From assembly GCF_002001175.1 (NCBI RefSeq), contig NZ_MUNT01000007.1, forward strand, positions 1 to 64,000: 64,000 bases of DNA, in the 5' to 3' direction. Positions 1-9,254 of this stretch are shown one piece after another. The position numbers and the translations under genes were made by a program. This stretch comes from Rhodanobacter sp. C03 (lineage in GTDB: Bacteria > Pseudomonadota > Gammaproteobacteria > Xanthomonadales > Rhodanobacteraceae). Numbering within the stretch: position 1 is the stretch's first letter; each line of letters begins with the position of its first letter. A model generated the notes under the pieces. The model did not search any database. It was not told where the DNA came from and saw nothing but the letters and a program-made list of their open reading frames with translations.

Positions 1-138
1 TCACGCCGTGTCGGCTTCTTCTTGGACTCGAAACTCAGCGAGGCAAAGGAACGCTGCTTCATCGGCGATGGGCTTCCTGGGAACGGCTGGCTATGATGCC
101 GCAGACGGGAAATAAATCAGAGTGTCCCTAATGGCAGC

Positions 139-1773
139 TTGCCCTTGTCCATTGGTAGGACGTTCCGCGTAGATGCTCAAATAGCTGACCAGCAAGGTCG
201 AACAAAAGCTCCCAATGCGGTATTCGGTGCGTATTGGGATCTCGATGTGCCCTACATGGTCGGTACGTTCGATGCCATCCGTGGATGGGTAAGCGCGGCT
301 CAGCCCGGTGTTAATGGTCTCACTGCGAGCGATACGTTGAAGCGATGCTCAGAAGGTGGCAGCGGGCCGCCTGGTACGTTGGGCATCGGGCAATTCAACT
401 TGATTTTTTATAATACATACCATTTCTTCTCAGGAATAAACATCAATATTCCAGGTAGTGGCATGCAAGAGGAGCTCATATTCCCCGGTAATTTGGTTAG
501 TGAGAATATCGGTGGCAACACGTATTTTTACAAAACAAAGAATAACTGGATGGTGAGCTGTCTGGGCTCCATTCAAAATGGGTCAGGAGAGGGATTTGTA
601 GTAAAGCTACCTGACGGCCGAACCTACAATTTTGATTGGATGGTCAGCCAACCCTATCCATATATTTTTGACGATACGTGCGGTACATCCATAAATATAC
701 TTACGTCGCCCGAGGCGTTCTCGTCTCCTGTGAGTGAGCAATGCACTGCGGGATATTCGCTCCCTAGGGCTCAGGTTTTTTTGTATGCGACAAAAGCCAC
801 TGATCGATTTGGAAATACAGTAACTTATACTTATGATCCGAGTAATCCGGGACATCTACTCCAAGTCAGTTCGAGTGACGGTGGGCTAATTAGCGTTGCG
901 TATGGATCGAATGGCCTTGCGTCTACTATAACTGCGGGATCAAGGCAGTGGACTTATGGCTACGACAGTGCATCGAATGCGATTACGTCTGTAACGTTGC
1001 CTGATGGAAGTAGTTGGTCCATGAATTACGGCCAAAATACCGTGGGAGTAACTCAATATCTGTCAAAGGCGGTATGGCTTGGCTGTCACATCAATATTGG
1101 TACCGAGACCACAGACGTGGCACCCGGACCCAATGATACGAACACCGTGACGATGACTCATCCGTCGGGTGCAGTGGGTACCTTCGAATTTCGGAAGATC
1201 CTGCATGGAACGCGTGAGGCGGAACCAACTTGTGCGATAGAGCCGTTGAGCGCTTCCGCACCATGGAATACAAGCACGTTGATTGAAGTCCCTAGTGACT
1301 ACCAAACGGCATCACTGGTGAGCAAAACCCTAACCATACCGGGCGCGTTGACGCAGCAATGGACGTATCAATATCACCCTGGCTGGGTCCCACCGCTGCA
1401 GTCAGTAACAACCGTGACTGATTCAGCTCAAACCGTGAGGAAATATACCTACGGCAGTGATCGCGCTTTGAATTTCGGAGAATTGCTTCAGGAAACGGAC
1501 AGCACCCCCTCGGGGTTGCTTCGTACCGTGACCTATCAATATCTGAATTCCGCCGTGGGACAAAACTTCGCTGACTCGGCGGGGCTCCCACTAGCGTTGA
1601 ATACGGGTTGGGAATCGGGATTCCATGATCTGAACCGCCCCTTGTACAGCACGACGATTACCCAGCAAGGCAAGTCTTTCAGCAAGACGATCGATACGGG
1701 CTGCCCATCGGCAGGGGTTTATTGCTTCGATAGCTTGGTCCGCCCCACGCGCGTGATTCGCAGTAGCCAGTGA
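139..1773 (+). CDS. RHS/YD-repeat protein, N-terminal part of a split RHS system
   Basis: This 544-residue frame contains the N-terminal region of large RHS proteins: aromatic, Gly-rich segments such as FFSGINI and IPGSG, then YD-type repeats (DRFGNTVTYTYD near residue 225). RHS proteins form a beta-shell that encloses a C-terminal toxin. The start is uncertain: TTG at 139 is the only initiator I can see in frame, an in-frame stop lies at 94-96, and there is no signal peptide and no convincing ribosome binding site. The true N-terminus may lie upstream in another frame, so the gene may be truncated or frameshifted. Its stop lies 56 bases before the ATG of the next RHS gene; that frame is also open from a GTG that overlaps the stop. 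Base composition is more AT-rich than the rest of the window, consistent with acquisition by transfer. Confidence 0.7.
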   Translation: MPLSIGRTFRVDAQIADQQGRTKAPNAVFGAYWDLDVPYMVGTFDAIRGWVSAAQPGVNGLTASDTLKRCSEGGSGPPGTLGIGQFNLIFYNTYHFFSGININIPGSGMQEELIFPGNLVSENIGGNTYFYKTKNNWMVSCLGSIQNGSGEGFVVKLPDGRTYNFDWMVSQPYPYIFDDTCGTSINILTSPEAFSSPVSEQCTAGYSLPRAQVFLYATKATDRFGNTVTYTYDPSNPGHLLQVSSSDGGLISVAYGSNGLASTITAGSRQWTYGYDSASNAITSVTLPDGSSWSMNYGQNTVGVTQYLSKAVWLGCHINIGTETTDVAPGPNDTNTVTMTHPSGAVGTFEFRKILHGTREAEPTCAIEPLSASAPWNTSTLIEVPSDYQTASLVSKTLTIPGALTQQWTYQYHPGWVPPLQSVTTVTDSAQTVRKYTYGSDRALNFGELLQETDSTPSGLLRTVTYQYLNSAVGQNFADSAGLPLALNTGWESGFHDLNRPLYSTTITQQGKSFSKTIDTGCPSAGVYCFDSLVRPTRVIRSSQ

Positions 1774-1829
1774 ATCGCCGCGTTGTGAGATTCGTGTGCA
1801 AGTCGATTGAGCAATTCCAGGGGCGGGCG

Positions 1830-4800
1830 ATGAGTCGAAAGCTAGGGGTATGTTTTGTCATTCTGTCTATCGTGGTTAATGCAAACGTGCACAGCCAGAC
1901 GGTAAGTCGTGTGGACACGATCGAATACTCGGATAATCTTTCGGCCTGGGTATTGGGACAAGTGAGTCGTACCACCACCAATGGCGTGGAGGTATCTCGC
2001 ACCTCGTACGACCCCGTTACCGCGTTGCCCATCGTGACCTACAATTTTGGGGAATTGAAGCAGTCTTTTACGTACAACGCCGATGGCACGGTCGCCTCCG
2101 TTAGCGACGGCAACAGCAACATCACTGGCCTTCAGAACTACATGCGCGGACTCCCGCAGGAGATTGATTTTCCGGCCACACCGGATCAGCCCGCGGGAAC
2201 CAAAGTCACGATCAGCGTGGACAATCTTGGTCAGGTCCAATGGGTCGTCGACGCGAGGGGTGCCAAGACGTGTTACGGCTACGATGCCATGGGCCGCGTC
2301 AATCTGATTCAGTACCCCTCCGAGACAGTCGTTGGCCAATGCGGTGGTTCGTGGAACCAGACGCAGATCTCGTTTAGCTCCAATTATCCGGCTGCCGACG
2401 GGTTGCCGGCAGGGCAATGGCGTCAGAGGGCGACGACCGGAAACCTGATGACGGAGACCTTATACGACGGTTTGTGGCGACCCGTTGTCCAGCAGAGCTA
2501 CGACGTGACCAACGTCAATGCGACGATCAGCCAGGTGGTCACCCGCTACGATTTGGACAGCAATCCCACGTTCGTCTCCTATCCGCAGCGCACGGTCGAC
2601 TCAGCAGTCACAAATACCTGGGCTGATCCGACGCAGGCGCCCAATGCCCTGGGCACGACGACCGTCTACGATGCGCTGGACCGAGTGACCTCGGCAACGC
2701 AGAGCGCGGAGTCTGGAGTCCAGGTCAAAACGACGACCAGCTATCTACCCGGATTCAAGACCCAAATCACCGATCCCAATAACAACGTCACAACGATCAG
2801 CTACCTGACGTACGACCAGCCCACAACCGACTGGCCGATGCTCATCAGCGCACCCGCGGGCGTCACCCAGACCATCGCTCGCGATGTCTTCGGCAGTCCC
2901 ACATCGATCAATCAGTCGGGCCTTTACAACGGTACCGAGAACGATTCGGTCACCAAGACGATGGTCTATGACATCTACCATCGGTTGTGCCGCACAACGG
3001 AGCCCGAAAGCGGAGATTCGTCCATTTCGTATGATGGCGCCGACAATATTCGACTGACCGCTCAAGGCTTGGCGCTGACCGAATCTGGCTGCGCGCGCGA
3101 TCAGGTGCCCAGCGCGACAACGACGGTATTCACCTACGATGCGATGAATCGGGTGAAGACGATCACGCCTCCGACGGGGGCGCAAAGCAGCCAATATACC
3201 TATGACGCCGCGGGCAATGTGACGTGGTTGAATTCCGGAAACAGTGTCTGGAATGGCGTCTACAACTATCGCAACATGTTGACCGGTGAGAGTTTGAACC
3301 AGGTGGGGCAGGTTCAGGTCTCCATGGGTTACGCCTATGACACAAACGGTCACCTGACGCTCCTTCAGTACCCAGGAGGTGAGCAGGTGAGTTATGCCCC
3401 GGATCCGCGGGGACAGCCCACCCTGGTCGCCACGAATAACACCTCCGGCGCTCCCAGCGGTTTCTATGCGAGCTCCGTGAGCTATTTCCCCAATCAGCAG
3501 GTCGCCTCCTTCCTGTTTGCCAACGGGAGTGCCTATGTCGCCGATCAAAACGCGCGGCAGTTGCTGAGCGACTTCAGCTACGCCACCGGGACCGGCGCAC
3601 TCAACGTGAGCGAAAGTTACACCTACGACTCCGACGCCAACATTGCTCATGAAGTCGATTTGGCCAATGCGGGAACGTCGCGCAGCAAATACTACGCCTA
3701 CGACGGACTCAACCGACTGACCGAAGCCGATGCGGCCGGGCTGTGGGGATCCAGCAAATACACGTACGACGCTTTGAACAACCTGCGTACGGTGATCAAA
3801 AATGGCGTGACATCGACCTACACTTATGACCCCACCAATCGCTTGAGCAGTATCAGCGGGGGTGTCACCGCCAGCTTCCAGTACGACACGCGGCGCAATG
3901 TCAGTAACAAGAACGGGGTGACTTATACCTTCGATCAGAAGGACCAGCTCACCCAGATCCAGGGCCTGGACAGTTTCTTGTACGACGGCAATGGGCGGCG
4001 GACGATCAAGACATCCAGTAGCGGCGACACCGTGTTTTCGTTTTACAACCACAGCGGTCAGCTCATGTACCAGAGCGACGCGGGGAGTAGCACGGCGACC
4101 AACTACATCTACCTGGGTACCAAGCTGATTGCCAAGAATGCCAATGAGCAGTTGGCCGCACCGGGCGCGATCACGTTTGACAGCAACCCCAACAACGGCA
4201 ACTACACGGTCAGCTGGGGAGCGACAGCAAGGGCGACGTCCTACGTGCTGGAAGAGAGTGCCAACGGCGGGGCGTGGACGGTGGTTAATTCCGGAAGTGG
4301 CACCAGCGTTGCGTTCACCAATAAGGGTAGTGGCGGCTACGTCTATCAAGTGCAGGGCTGCGACAACGCCAACCATACCTGCAGCCCTTGGACGACCTCG
4401 GCCACGCTGGGGGTGACGCCGTCGCTGCCGACGGTGACGGTACCCACAGGTACCATCAATGGCTCCTATAGCGTCAGCTGGACGGCGCCCGCAGGCGCGA
4501 CCAGTTACGCCGTGCAGGAAAGTTTGAATGGTGGTGCATGGACGACGATCGCCAGCAATACGACGGCCACCTCGATCAGCCGGCCGGGAACCACCTACGG
4601 AACTGACGCGTATCAGGTTTCGGCCAGCAACGCTTACGGTAATCGCGGCTGGACGGCTTCGGCTTTTGTATATGTCCTGCCGCCGCCCGGCACGGTGAGC
4701 TTCAGCGCTAACCCCAATAACGGCAACTACACGGTGAGTTGGGGTGCGGTGTCGGCAGCAACCTCTTACACCTTGCAGGAGAGTGTCAACGGCGGGGCAT

Positions 4801-5603
4801 GGACGATGGCATATACCGGCAGCGGCACCAGTGCAGCGATGGTTAACAAGCCCGGTGGTGGCTACGTCTATCAGGTGCAAGCCTGCGAGGGCGGTGACTG
4901 CGGGGGTTGGACGGTTTCGGCCACGCTGGGGGTCACGCCAGCACTGCCCACCGGCATCACGGTGCCGAGCAGCCTCACCTTTGCCCCCTTCACGGTGAGC
5001 TGGACCGCGCCGACCGGCGCCACCAGTTACACCGTGCAGCAGAGCTTCAACGGCGGGGCCTGGACGACGATCGCCAACGCCATCACGACATCCTCCTACA
5101 GCGTGACCAGTGCGCCCGGGGGCACGTACACCTTCCAAGTCTCCGCCAGTAACGCCTATGGCAGCCGCGGCTGGATGGCTTCCGCACCGGTATCGGTGAC
5201 ACAGGTGCCGGCTCCGCCGACGAACCTCGTAGCAAGCAGCAGTGGCGGCAAGATCGTGTTGACCTGGGATGCAATGCAGTGGGCGACCACCTATGCCATC
5301 ACCGTCTATGGCACCCACGGTTCGTTGGGCGAATACCTTTACAACGTTGCCACGAACAGCTTCAACATGCCCAGCGAGGCACCGGGCACATACTCCTTCA
5401 CAATCAGTGCCTGCAGCATTGCCGGATGCAGCGCCGCGGTCAGCAATAACGGTGGCCCATTCAACTTTCAGGGGGCGGGCGACGTGGTGTCCCCTGGCAA
5501 GGCGATTGCCAGCAAAGTACGCTCAGTTTTAGGTATGGACAGCGGCAGCAGCGAGGGGTGCAGCGCGACACAATGCACGGCCGTGGCAGGGGGCAGCCCA
5601 TGA
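1830..5603 (+). CDS. RHS-repeat protein with a signal peptide and five fibronectin-III-like repeats
   Basis: A 1257-residue protein. I chose ATG 1830 because it is preceded by a purine-rich AGGGGCGGG stretch and starts a clear signal peptide (residues 1-23, ending near VHSQ). The frame is also open upstream from a GTG at 1770 that overlaps the stop of the preceding gene. Residues from about 60 to 760 are YD/RHS repeats (YTYDPTNRL, YDALNNLRT, YDGLNRLTEAD). From about 777 to 1215 there are about five repeats of 85-90 residues with fibronectin-III-like character (NYTVSWGA, SYTLQESVNGGAWT, YQVSASNAYG). It lacks the RHS-associated core and toxin tip, which are encoded by the next gene. The stop overlaps the next start as ATGA, so the two are probably translationally coupled. 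An RHS body ending in FnIII-like repeats rather than in the core is unusual. Confidence 0.85.
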   Translation: MSRKLGVCFVILSIVVNANVHSQTVSRVDTIEYSDNLSAWVLGQVSRTTTNGVEVSRTSYDPVTALPIVTYNFGELKQSFTYNADGTVASVSDGNSNITGLQNYMRGLPQEIDFPATPDQPAGTKVTISVDNLGQVQWVVDARGAKTCYGYDAMGRVNLIQYPSETVVGQCGGSWNQTQISFSSNYPAADGLPAGQWRQRATTGNLMTETLYDGLWRPVVQQSYDVTNVNATISQVVTRYDLDSNPTFVSYPQRTVDSAVTNTWADPTQAPNALGTTTVYDALDRVTSATQSAESGVQVKTTTSYLPGFKTQITDPNNNVTTISYLTYDQPTTDWPMLISAPAGVTQTIARDVFGSPTSINQSGLYNGTENDSVTKTMVYDIYHRLCRTTEPESGDSSISYDGADNIRLTAQGLALTESGCARDQVPSATTTVFTYDAMNRVKTITPPTGAQSSQYTYDAAGNVTWLNSGNSVWNGVYNYRNMLTGESLNQVGQVQVSMGYAYDTNGHLTLLQYPGGEQVSYAPDPRGQPTLVATNNTSGAPSGFYASSVSYFPNQQVASFLFANGSAYVADQNARQLLSDFSYATGTGALNVSESYTYDSDANIAHEVDLANAGTSRSKYYAYDGLNRLTEADAAGLWGSSKYTYDALNNLRTVIKNGVTSTYTYDPTNRLSSISGGVTASFQYDTRRNVSNKNGVTYTFDQKDQLTQIQGLDSFLYDGNGRRTIKTSSSGDTVFSFYNHSGQLMYQSDAGSSTATNYIYLGTKLIAKNANEQLAAPGAITFDSNPNNGNYTVSWGATARATSYVLEESANGGAWTVVNSGSGTSVAFTNKGSGGYVYQVQGCDNANHTCSPWTTSATLGVTPSLPTVTVPTGTINGSYSVSWTAPAGATSYAVQESLNGGAWTTIASNTTATSISRPGTTYGTDAYQVSASNAYGNRGWTASAFVYVLPPPGTVSFSANPNNGNYTVSWGAVSAATSYTLQESVNGGAWTMAYTGSGTSAAMVNKPGGGYVYQVQACEGGDCGGWTVSATLGVTPALPTGITVPSSLTFAPFTVSWTAPTGATSYTVQQSFNGGAWTTIANAITTSSYSVTSAPGGTYTFQVSASNAYGSRGWMASAPVSVTQVPAPPTNLVASSSGGKIVLTWDAMQWATTYAITVYGTHGSLGEYLYNVATNSFNMPSEAPGTYSFTISACSIAGCSAAVSNNGGPFNFQGAGDVVSPGKAIASKVRSVLGMDSGSSEGCSATQCTAVAGGSP

Positions 5604-6634
5604 GCACGCGGACCAGAAAGTGGCAGCTGCGATGGGGCATGGTGATGTGCATGCTGATGGCCGGCGTGGCGCATGCCAGTGGTGGCTCGGTGACTTACGT
5701 CTACACCGATCCGCAGGGCACGCCGCTGGCGGAGGCTGACGCGAACGGCAATATCACGGCGACCTACGACTACATGCCGTATGGCAGTCAGGCGCTCGGT
5801 ACGGCGCCGAACGGGCCGGGGTATACGGGGCATGTGAACGATCCGGATACTGGGCTCGTCTATATGCAGGCACGCTATTACGATCCGAGTGTGGGGCGCT
5901 TTCTCAGTACTGATCCGGTCACGCCAACAGCAGGCAATGCGTTTAACTTCAGCCGCTACGCGTATGCCAACAACAATCCGATCGTAAATACCGATCCAGA
6001 TGGACGCCAGGATGCGGCTTTGGAAGAGCAGTCCCCGCAGCCGCCGCCCAGCTTATTGGAAAGTGTCAAAAACCGAGTAACGAATCTTGCGTATCAAATA
6101 GCCAGCGATGGGAAAACCCTTAGCGGAGCGAATCTAAATGCAACTGCGGGTGATTTCACTGGAGCCCTAGTTAGAACGGTAGCGATGGCTTCGCCTTTAG
6201 CCTTAGAGGGTGGAGCGGCGCGTTTCGCTATGGCCGGTTCAGAGACTGCCTTCTCCAGTAGCGAGCTGAGATTTTCCCAGACAACGGCCAGCCCCTTCTT
6301 TAGCTCTCAAGGAAGTTTTGCTGGCCAATCTATTGCTGATGTGGCGGGACAATTGCGAGCTGGTAGCCTATCGGCTTCTGATGTTCCAGTGCAGACAGTC
6401 TCGCTAGGGCGGAATCCATTGATTGTGAACACGCGATCCGCACTTTCTCTGATGCAATCAGGAACACCGCAAAGCGGATGGAGTCTTATCGACATGACCG
6501 GCCATGCAGGAACCGAAGCTCAAATAACTCAGCGACTATCTAACAACGGTCTTTCAACGAATGGCACCGATGTTTTGCGCATAACAGGGTCTGGATCGAA
6601 TACGAGCACCTTGGTGCCTGGACAACCTCAATGA
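5600..6634 (+). CDS. Secreted RHS core protein with a variable C-terminal (toxin-like) tip
   Basis: A 344-residue protein starting at an ATG that overlaps the previous stop. Residues 1-26 are a signal peptide. Residues 30-135 are the RHS-associated core, with the hallmarks GLVYMQARYYDPSVGRF (85-101) and RYAYANNNP followed by DPDG at 132-135, the place where RHS proteins are usually cleaved from their toxin tip. The remaining 210 residues are variable and AT-richer. The end (about 270-344) contains DVPVQ, NPLIVNTRSALSLMQSG and IDMTGHAG, which faintly recall ParB/sulfiredoxin-fold tips; that comparison is weak. By family knowledge this tip is the toxic domain and the overlapping downstream gene its immunity protein. 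Possession of its own signal peptide suggests that the core-toxin piece is exported separately from the RHS shell. Confidence 0.8.
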   Translation: MSTRTRKWQLRWGMVMCMLMAGVAHASGGSVTYVYTDPQGTPLAEADANGNITATYDYMPYGSQALGTAPNGPGYTGHVNDPDTGLVYMQARYYDPSVGRFLSTDPVTPTAGNAFNFSRYAYANNNPIVNTDPDGRQDAALEEQSPQPPPSLLESVKNRVTNLAYQIASDGKTLSGANLNATAGDFTGALVRTVAMASPLALEGGAARFAMAGSETAFSSSELRFSQTTASPFFSSQGSFAGQSIADVAGQLRAGSLSASDVPVQTVSLGRNPLIVNTRSALSLMQSGTPQSGWSLIDMTGHAGTEAQITQRLSNNGLSTNGTDVLRITGSGSNTSTLVPGQPQ

Positions 6635-7026
6635 TTGATGAATTTTGGAAATTGCCGGTGGCTGCCACTGCGCTTCTGGCCGATCCCACTTTTGTAATCT
6701 TACCCATGCGGCAATGTGAAATCTTTTTTTGCATAGAGGGATCTGACGGAGCGCCGGTAAAGATCAGCCTCATTTTTGACGGTGTGGAAGCTTTCAGATG
6801 CACTTATCTCACGTCATGCAGTGCGGAAATGTTCAGTAGTGCCTATGGAAAATTAGTGAGCCTGAAAGTGACTCCTTGGCTAATCGAGCTATTGAAAACA
6901 CATGAGAATTCTAAGCGTCCTTCAAAAGATTTTAAGCATATGATGATTTGCTTTGATGATGGTCCTTGCTATGAATTCATTTGTTTGAGTTTTTCAGTAA
7001 ACGAAGAGGTCAAAGACATTAAATGA
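6631..7026 (+). CDS. Putative immunity protein for the RHS toxin tip
   Basis: A 131-residue protein with no family I recognise. It begins at an ATG overlapping the TGA of the RHS core/toxin gene (ATGA), which implies translational coupling. It has no signal peptide and looks cytoplasmic: a mixed alpha/beta sequence with many aromatic residues and five cysteines. It is clearly more AT-rich than its surroundings, as is typical of toxin/immunity tails of RHS loci. Position, size and composition all fit an immunity protein that neutralises the tip encoded just upstream, but that is inference from context; no motif proves it. The following 80 bases hold nothing coding before the mobile-element remnants start. 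Confidence 0.6.
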   Translation: MIDEFWKLPVAATALLADPTFVILPMRQCEIFFCIEGSDGAPVKISLIFDGVEAFRCTYLTSCSAEMFSSAYGKLVSLKVTPWLIELLKTHENSKRPSKDFKHMMICFDDGPCYEFICLSFSVNEEVKDIK

Positions 7027-7908: not shown

Positions 7909-9254
7909 CTGAGGTTTCCCCACGTTTTCATGCGGCCACAGCCATCTGATCGAGCAGTGCCGGAGACGGCTTTCGTATTTGCTCCATGAGTTCTTCAAGC
8001 CTGGCATTCGACCATCGTCTCACTAGCGCCTCACGGCCGAGCCGCACGATCGAGTACAGCCGTCGCCTGGATCGAAACGGCATCAGCCATTGATCGATGC
8101 CTGCGGTTTCGCAAGCCATACCGACCAGCCAACTGGCGAAGGCCGCCATCGTGTGGAGTAACAGCAACACCTCGATGCGCTTGCGCTTGCGGGTCAAGCT
8201 GTCCTCAAAGGCATGACCGTAGCGGTGCGATTTGAGGTCCCGGAAGGACAGTTCGATCTGCATGCGTCGCGCATACAACGCGACCATCTGCCGGGCGCTC
8301 AAGTGACTCAGTGTCGGTGAAGCGACGAGGAGCCATGGCTCCCGCTCACGCGCCGCGTTCTGCTTGCTCTTCTTGGTGCGCGAGGGCACGCCCTGACGAT
8401 TGCGTTGCTTGCGTCCCTTCGGTGGCTTGGCATGCACTACCACGCGGCAGCGCCAGGGCTTCGCGCGCACCGTATCCATCAGCCCCAAGTCGCGTGGCGC
8501 GGCGACGGCCAACTCATAGAGCGCCCGACACGGTACCGACGCATCCGGCGTATCCACTGTATCGACAGGCTTGACCAGCGTGCGGTGGCGCAGACGGCCA
8601 AGCCAGTACCAACCCATCGCTTCGACGGCACGGAACCATGGCGCGCGAAAGCCGGCATCGGTGACCAGGATCGGCTGTACATCATCAGGAATCAGCGTCG
8701 CCAACCGTTGCATGAACTGCTTCTCTGCCGCCGGCGAACCCTGTTGTCCGTCGGGGAAGACCATGTCCAATATCGTCAGGGTGCGACCACCGACGGGAAC
8801 CGCCGCGCGTAAAAGATGCCAGCGCTGATCGGCCTTCAGATTGCACCAGTCCAGCACGATGACCGGATGCGGGCCGCGCAGCAGCCAGCGCGCCATGGCC
8901 GCATGCAGATGTTCACGCTCCGCGTGCAGATGCGGGTTGCCCAGCAGTCGATCAAGCGCCTTCAGCGGCGCACGGATACGCTCTGCCTCAGGCCATGCGC
9001 GGGCGACGTCGATCAGGGTCAGGCGTCGGCCGTGGATCAACGCTTCCACGGCGCGCAACAACACGCGACGGCGCAGCGCATGCATCGGCTGCAGTGCATC
9101 GCCCAGGCACTTTTTGCAATACTTTGGTCGCGCGCATGGTGTGGTCTCCTCTGGCTTCGTAACCCGTGAGGAATGACCGCATCATGCGCGCACCGTTCCT
9201 TCAGTCCGCACGCAAGGCGTTGATTGAGCGAGGAGATTCGTGGGGAAACCTCAG
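7909..9254 (-). mobile_element. IS4-family insertion sequence, 1346 bp, with target duplication
   Basis: The element is bounded by a perfect 16-bp inverted repeat: CTGAGGTTTCCCCACG at 7909-7924 and its complement at 9239-9254. Immediately outside, the 9-mer GGACGGAGG occurs on both sides (7900-7908 and 9255-9263), a target-site duplication of the length produced by IS10-like IS4 elements. Inside is one transposase gene on the minus strand. The target is a copy of the 83-bp dispersed repeat, whose uninterrupted version lies at 9679. Intact ends and perfect target duplication indicate a fairly recent insertion. Confidence 0.9.
7928..9085 (-). CDS. IS4-family DDE transposase, possibly frameshifted near its N-terminus
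   Basis: 385 residues from the in-frame ATG at 9085. The catalytic triad is visible as Asp79 (VIVLDWCN), Asp143 (VTDAGFR) and Glu278 (MQIELSFRDLK). Tyr271, Arg274, Glu278 and Lys285 match the Y-(2)-R-(3)-E-(6)-K signature of the IS4 family exactly. It cuts and re-joins the ends of the surrounding element. A better start seems to be the ATG at 9137, whose product begins MRATKVLQK like relatives, but that frame runs out of register with the main frame about 10 codons later; one extra base around 9105-9112 would explain this. Activity therefore depends on initiation at 9085 or on frameshifting. Confidence 0.85.
   Translation of the reverse strand: MHALRRRVLLRAVEALIHGRRLTLIDVARAWPEAERIRAPLKALDRLLGNPHLHAEREHLHAAMARWLLRGPHPVIVLDWCNLKADQRWHLLRAAVPVGGRTLTILDMVFPDGQQGSPAAEKQFMQRLATLIPDDVQPILVTDAGFRAPWFRAVEAMGWYWLGRLRHRTLVKPVDTVDTPDASVPCRALYELAVAAPRDLGLMDTVRAKPWRCRVVVHAKPPKGRKQRNRQGVPSRTKKSKQNAAREREPWLLVASPTLSHLSARQMVALYARRMQIELSFRDLKSHRYGHAFEDSLTRKRKRIEVLLLLHTMAAFASWLVGMACETAGIDQWLMPFRSRRRLYSIVRLGREALVRRWSNARLEELMEQIRKPSPALLDQMAVAA

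What the first reader, a model, noticed from the sequence alone, without database searches (positions are those of the whole stretch)
1830..6634. RHS toxin protein divided into separately exported pieces
The RHS body (1830-5603) and the RHS core plus toxin tip (5600-6634) are encoded by different genes, each with its own signal peptide, joined by an ATGA overlap. RHS proteins normally are a single chain in which the shell encloses the tip. A frameshift cannot explain the split simply, because the second piece begins with a complete signal peptide. A cage assembled in the periplasm from two coupled polypeptides would be a new RHS architecture.
Basis: partly seen in the sequence, partly recalled or inferred. 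Interest (0 to 1): 0.75.

Follow-up and report, generated by a model that had tools for sequence, protein, structure and literature searches.

The report
Toxin cage exported in separate pieces
Here a bacterial toxin cage that is usually one long protein is encoded as three neighbouring genes; at least two carry their own export signal and relatives keep the same breaks, so the cage may be put together outside the cytoplasm from interchangeable parts.

Summary
Observation confirmed, and larger than reported. The window's RHS protein is cut into three genes: N-piece (ORF1, to 1773), shell with FN3-like repeats (ORF2, 1830-5603), core plus toxin tip (ORF3, 5600-6634), then a probable immunity gene (6631-7026). 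Each joint is a stop followed by a new signal-peptide-like start. In relatives near the query the core cut is the rule: 82 of 94 core copies are separate genes with such a start. Of 59 with 6 kb upstream, 27 lie within 700 nt of a core-less shell, 26 near none. One-chain relatives run through both joints; one carries the window's own tip and immunity gene (69% and 71%). The N-piece cut recurs at the same place in 7 further loci. Among 67 shells the one-chain and split states interchange at least 7 times. This is not plain decay, although the window's ORF1 has lost its start at a repeat on the contig edge. Best reading: an exported RHS cage assembled from two or three chains with exchangeable 'seal plus toxin' cartridges, like TcB/TcC but cut elsewhere and Sec-exported. 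Assembly is inferred; no structure or experiment was obtained. A two-chain RHS cage as such is known (TcB-TcC).

The parts
1..130 (-). End of a repeated element at the contig edge that cuts into ORF1; the reverse strand reads MKQRSFASLSFESKKKPTRR, like the start of an IS5-type transposase (recalled, no call); CTAA at 128-131
   Evidence: 99-100% identical copies at the starts of contigs C5, C14 and C20
97..1773 (+). ORF1, N-terminal piece of the RHS shell, 5' end missing (starts at the equivalent of residue 110 of the relative in L132)
   Evidence: 52.6% identity over 553 aa to the complete N-piece of L132, which has a signal peptide; PF05593 RHS_repeat
1770..1898 (+). Joint J1: GTGA overlap at 1770, then ATG 1830 and a signal-peptide-like segment to about 1898
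   Evidence: One chain runs through here in L190, L136, L187, L137, L050; cut at the same place in 7 further loci
1830..5603 (+). ORF2, main shell piece: YD/RHS repeats to about 4130, then FN3-like repeats to about 5460, no RHS core
   Evidence: (residues 433-738 align to 715-1015 of RhsP, PDB 8h8a; FN3 hits 3mpc, 4u3h)
5600..5677 (+). Joint J2: ATGA overlap and signal-peptide-like segment ending AHA
   Evidence: in 63 of 82 split copies the AxA ends just before the core
5600..6634 (+). ORF3: signal peptide, RHS core (about 5678-6010), variable toxin tip (6011-6631)
   Evidence: TIGR03696 E 2.5e-22; core matches the C-terminal part of solved RHS cages, e.g. 8h8a 1030-1151
6631..7026 (+). ORF4, probable immunity gene, ATGA overlap with ORF3, no signal peptide seen
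   Evidence: 70.6% relative directly behind the 69.5% relative of the tip in L146; no Pfam or NCBIfam hit

Best explanation
This is an exported RHS polymorphic-toxin cage that is made as three chains (two in most relatives) and put together after Sec export. Shown by sequence: one ancestral type of RHS chain is interrupted at two fixed joints, J1 inside the shell and J2 between shell and core, each time by a stop and a new signal-peptide-like start; the pieces are kept as neighbouring genes in relatives; the core-tip piece also occurs alone, many to one shell. Inferred: after export the core, which in known RHS structures spirals into one end of the cage and seals it, docks on the open end of the shell where it sits in one-chain relatives, and brings its toxin tip. 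FN3-like repeats at the end of the shell mark the joint in most cases. Because the tip rides on its own small gene, one shell could be loaded with several toxins. ORF4 would protect the maker.
For: (1) Joint J2: 82 of 94 core copies in 77 named loci plus own copies are separate ORFs with a signal-peptide-like start, 3 one-chain, 4 without such a start, 5 at contig edges. (2) All four joint states exist: of 72 shells, J1 whole/J2 cut 40, both whole 9, both cut 4 (window, L132, L200, L201), J1 cut/J2 whole 4 (L159, L167, L202, L203), 15 others at edges, short or unclear. (3) The two states interchange at least 7 times on the shell tree (67 rows), so cut and whole forms seem to do the same job. 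(4) The window's tip and immunity gene have 69.5% and 70.6% relatives in G146, there at the end of a one-chain RHS of 1617 aa (L146). (5) Intermediate: L189 is one chain shell-FN3-core; L191 looks alike. FN3 follows the shell in 44 of 45 cut shells against 0 of 17 'fused', plus L189. (6) The two ORFs match consecutive parts of one solved cage, RhsP 8h8a. (7) 44 of 51 family genomes with a close core also have a close shell; 2 of 96 others do. (8) Bodies: 26 of 28 have a signal-peptide-like start. (9) Precedent: TcB-TcC shell and orphan YenC3 in trans (PMC11067744, passages).
Against: Signal peptides rest on a home-made rule that also fires on 90 of 255 non-RHS ORFs; under a stricter rule 57 of 82 against 38 of 255. 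26 of 59 split cores with 6 kb upstream have no shell in reach and 7 of 51 genomes with a close core show no close shell (at least two of these, G063 and G067, have shells running into contig ends). The window's ORF1 has no start in this assembly. Shell and core distances correlate (Mantel r 0.48 against 0.69 within the shell), but species kinship alone could give that. Co-occurrence is not corrected for kinship.
Confidence: 0.6

Rival explanations
1. The core-tip is an independent small exported toxin; the core is only an export or folding leader and never joins the shell. Body and core-tip are neighbours by descent.
For: 26 of 59 split cores with 6 kb upstream have no shell in reach; G136 and others have cores without a close shell; the core keeps both aspartates of the autoprotease in 71 of 82, so it may work alone.
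Against: The core is only the last turns of a larger cage and matches the C-terminal end of solved cages; repeated swaps with the one-chain form; same tip on both forms; close cores go with close shells in 44 of 51 genomes; tight selection on core residues.
Confidence: 0.22
2. Standby cassettes: the separate core-tip genes are a store for recombination into a one-chain RHS; the signal peptide lets a cassette be read after landing behind any shell.
For: Tandem cassettes with pieces of the FN3 end (L039, L043, L147); mosaic ORF2; broken copies in arrays (L154, L158); orphan Rhs tips as a store are a known idea (PMC11067744, passages).
Against: Most shells in the sample have no core of their own (40 of 72 whole at J1 and cut at J2), so landing would not give a one-chain protein; a signal peptide would not be needed inside a chain.
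Confidence: 0.13
3. Decay: stops and spurious starts in a dying RHS gene.
For: The window's ORF1 lost its 5' end; broken copies exist (L111/L144, L136, L154, L158).
Against: Same joints in many genera and families; dN/dS far below 1; L132 keeps all three pieces open with 44-58% identity.
Confidence: 0.03

Closest known systems
TcB-TcC cocoon of Tc (ABC) toxins
   Same: One RHS cage from two polypeptides; core and variable toxin at the C-terminal chain; orphan TcC genes join the shell in trans (PMC11067744, passages).
   Different: TcC brings about 680 residues of shell before its variable region (passage), here the core piece brings about 110; here each chain starts with a signal-peptide-like segment, whereas YenTc is released by a lysis cassette (PMC10847046, passages); FN3 repeats at the joint; no propeller or TcA seen by Pfam in ORF1-ORF4.
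T6SS Rhs effectors (RhsA, RhsP, Tse5)
   Same: RHS repeats, core that seals the cage, variable tip, immunity gene.
   Different: Those are one gene with an N-terminal delivery part and a PxxxxDPxG(L/W/F) cleavage site (PMC8765631, passages); here Sec-like starts, R or K after DPxG, and split Rhs in 5 genomes without the T6SS sheath gene.
Sec-exported RHS polymorphic toxins (WapA type; bacterial teneurin-like proteins)
   Same: Signal peptide, RHS shell, variable toxin; Sec export of RHS toxins is listed in PMC3482391 (passages) and PMC13018210 (passages).
   Different: One chain there; no multi-chain form met in the passages seen.

Membership tests
RHS/YD polymorphic toxins | RHS repeats | tested here: met
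   PF05593 over cut-off in ORF1 and ORF2
RHS/YD polymorphic toxins | RHS-associated core followed by a variable tip | tested here: met
   TIGR03696 in ORF3; tips differ, only one relative of this tip among the loci searched
RHS/YD polymorphic toxins | Immunity gene behind the tip | tested here: inconclusive
   ORF4 travels with the tip in L146; activity not tested
RHS/YD polymorphic toxins | Autoprotease: two aspartates and PxxxxDPxG(L/W/F) | tested here: inconclusive
   Both aspartates in 71 of 82 split cores; residue after DPxG is R 37, K 13, L 1 of 77
TcB-TcC | RHS cage split into two chains | tested here: inconclusive
   Separate genes shown; joint cage not shown
TcB-TcC | TcB with SpvB and propeller domains | tested here: not met
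   No such Pfam hit in ORF1 (5' end missing) or ORF2
TcB-TcC | TcA partner | not tested
   No search for TcA was made
T6SS Rhs effector | PAAR or other T6SS delivery domain at the N-terminus | tested here: not met
   None in ORF1-ORF3; 26 of 28 full bodies start with a signal-peptide-like segment; the window's own N-terminus is missing

The most novel reading that the evidence does not exclude
A new way of building an RHS cage: up to three chains, each sent through Sec on its own, meet in the periplasm; the N-piece closes one end, the middle piece is the wall with an FN3 tail, and a small core-plus-toxin cartridge closes the other end. One shell serves several cartridges from scattered genes, so a cell changes its toxin by changing a small gene, and the joints can be opened and closed in evolution.
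Probability: 0.42. Interest if true: 0.85.

Novelty: new variant of a known kind. Interest (0 to 1): 0.7.

Why it matters
RHS cages are thought to fold as one chain around their toxin, with Tc toxins the known two-chain case. Fixed joints at which Gammaproteobacteria repeatedly break and rejoin the chain, each time with an export signal, would show that cage walls and seal can meet after crossing a membrane, would explain how one cell keeps many toxin tips for few shells, and would make loading of an exported cage testable with two small purified proteins. It also means that genes now filed as separate 'RHS core' and 'YD repeat' proteins, and easily taken for broken genes, may be parts of one machine.

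Tried and rejected
Frameshift or decay at 5600: rejected, because the boundary and signal peptide recur. One single origin of the split: not supported; the label needs 9 changes, at least 7 forced by well-supported branches. Loss of the cleavage-site leucine as a mark of the split: rejected, since one-chain relatives of the same lineage also have R. T6SS as necessary carrier: disfavoured, since the sheath gene is absent from 6 of 21 genomes, 5 of which have shell and separate core-length frames (for G361 and G078 judged by frame length only). Toxin type of the tip: no Pfam or NCBIfam hit; unresolved. Orphan counts: my first count (28 of 59) used a 700-nt limit; one search gives 26 without a shell in reach, 3 at 0.7-1.5 kb and 3 at 1.5-6.5 kb. 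Literature: nine searches listed no paper on RHS toxins split into separately exported pieces; I saw listings and, for six papers, passages only.

Full report
What is there. Window 1-64000 is the start of contig C17 of a 3.86-Mb genome; its relatives are Rhodanobacteraceae. Four open frames follow each other on the + strand: ORF1 (frame 97-1770, stop to 1773), ORF2 (1830-5603), ORF3 (5600-6634) and ORF4 (6631-7026), with overlaps GTGA at 1770, ATGA at 5600 and ATGA at 6631. ORF1 and ORF2 carry RHS repeats, ORF2 also FN3-like repeats, ORF3 the RHS core. ORF2 and ORF3 match neighbouring stretches of one solved cage, RhsP 8h8a: 715-1015 and 1030-1151 (profile search of the shell).

The second joint. 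ORF1 is the N-terminal part of the same shell. In L132 (G012, genus-mates of Oleiagrimonas by the loci shared with named records, an inference) the same three genes lie in the same order, each with a signal-peptide-like start; identities are 52.6%, 43.5% and 57.5% for the aligned parts of N-piece, shell and core. One-chain relatives (L190, L136, L187, L137, L050) run through this joint with only a few residues between the ends of ORF1 and the mature start of ORF2. The window is a mosaic: ORF1 and the first 300 or so residues of ORF2 are 51-59% identical to L132, the rest of ORF2 58-76% to L050 of Rhodanobacter B04, except the last 140-residue window (46%). In 299 genomes of the order only 5 have an N-piece this close at E 1e-60; beside G000 and G012 these are G175 (two places), G321 and G346, all with frames of 614-647 aa.

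How general. From one scan of named genomes the 77 loci kept are the best of at least 554 matches, so the sample leans towards the query, which included the signal peptide. In them and the own copies, after removing duplicates, 94 cores were classed: 82 split with a signal-peptide-like start, 3 one-chain, 4 without such a start, 5 at edges. In 63 of 82 the AxA lies at the same place just before the core; start codons ATG 74, GTG 8. The rule is lenient: it fires on 90 of 255 non-RHS ORFs of the same loci; a stricter one on 57 of 82 against 38 of 255. For J1 the strict rule accepts 6 of 8. Of 59 split cores with at least 6 kb upstream, 27 have a core-less shell within 700 nt, 3 at 0.7-1.5 kb, 3 at 1.5-6.5 kb, 26 none.

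Wider range. 96 of 147 family genomes have a core match at 1e-10 and 178 of 299 order genomes; these include one-chain forms. Stretches fetched from a second family of the order (f2) show paired split loci (L161, L166, L169, L170, L171), split cores alone (L154-L158, L164, L165, L168) and one-chain loci (L159, L162, L167). In the class, 24 of 369 genomes match at 1e-18, 20 of them outside the order; I fetched the 11 with short frames or contig ends, and 9 show a separate core with a signal-peptide-like start by eye, 2 lie at contig ends; of the 9 not fetched 8 have frames of 699-2307 aa, as one-chain forms would, and one 451 aa. In several of these outside loci a core-less shell without FN3 match precedes the core (L204, L205, L208, L210, L212, L213).

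Joint states. Of 72 shells: J1 whole/J2 cut 40; both whole 9; both cut 4; J1 cut/J2 whole 4; the other 15 at contig edges, short, or without a core found. Downstream cores of the 47 J2-cut shells have a signal-peptide-like start in 44. FN3 matches lie in 41 of 47 J2-cut and 1 of 15 J2-whole shells; in the earlier set of 67, in 44 of 45 cut and behind the shell in L189 alone of 19 one-chain rows (L188 has FN3 before the shell). L189 (G098) is one chain of 2191 aa, shell-FN3-core, with no signal peptide between; L191 (G085) looks alike but its shell match is short. On a tree of 67 shells the split label needs 9 changes, at least 7 forced by starred branches, against 16.6 for shuffled labels. Recombination of the 3' part can also move the label.

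Function. The window's tip and ORF4 have 69.5% and 70.6% relatives side by side in L146 (G146), where the tip ends a one-chain RHS of 1617 aa. So one toxin-immunity pair is carried by both forms. Core dN/dS is low in all classes (medians 0.084 orphan-orphan, 0.111 body-body, 0.2 fragment-fragment; dS is near saturation in most). Close cores and close shells go together: 44 of 51 genomes with core at 1e-35 have a shell at 1e-80, 2 of 96 others do (kinship not corrected). In 20 near-complete genomes cores outnumber shells in several, e.g. G143 and G021. The T6SS sheath gene is present in 15 of 21 genomes, the own one included, and absent from 6, of which 5 have shell and separate core-length frames. 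In solved cages the core spirals into one end and seals it (PMC8765631, passages). I therefore think that the exported core-tip docks on the open end of the exported shell. This step is inferred.

State of the window copy. The first 130 bases recur at the starts of C5, C14 and C20. ORF1 begins right behind them, at the equivalent of residue 110 of L132, so its signal peptide is missing from this assembly; no 5' fragment was found at the readable contig ends. ORF2, ORF3 and ORF4 are open. Whether this copy works is unknown.

Compared with the known. TcB and TcC form one shell from two chains, and an orphan TcC joins in trans (PMC11067744, abstract and passages). That is the closest working likeness. 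The cut, the export route and the FN3 tail differ, and TcB domains were not found in ORF1 and ORF2. So I call it a new variant of RHS toxins that may work like TcB-TcC, not a Tc toxin. Nine searches of the held library listed no description of it; subscription papers and preprints are mostly not held.

Noticed in passing
window 7928-9085 (-): IS4-family transposase gene (NF033591, E 4e-91) shortly behind the RHS locus.
   Followed up: no
L007 6475-7413 (G000:C11): Third core-tip of the genome, orphan, right behind two S53-like protease genes (name recalled); the start before its core shows no clear signal peptide.
   Followed up: partly
Split and one-chain relatives, core end: The residue after DPxG is mostly R or K in this lineage, while the longer one-chain RHS of the same genomes often have L; cleavage may differ.
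   Followed up: partly
L147 (G060), L154 and L158 (Xanthomonadaceae-like f2): Tandem arrays of core-tip genes, in L147 with FN3 pieces between them; some members are broken.
   Followed up: no
G000:C17:284815-285720: T6SS sheath gene (VipB) on the same contig, about 280 kb from the RHS locus.
   Followed up: no
L188 (G008): One chain of 3445 aa with FN3-like repeats before the RHS shell and a core at the end.
   Followed up: no
L136 (G072), L144 and L111: Shell genes interrupted by in-frame stops or frame changes without new signal peptides, as true decay would look.
   Followed up: partly
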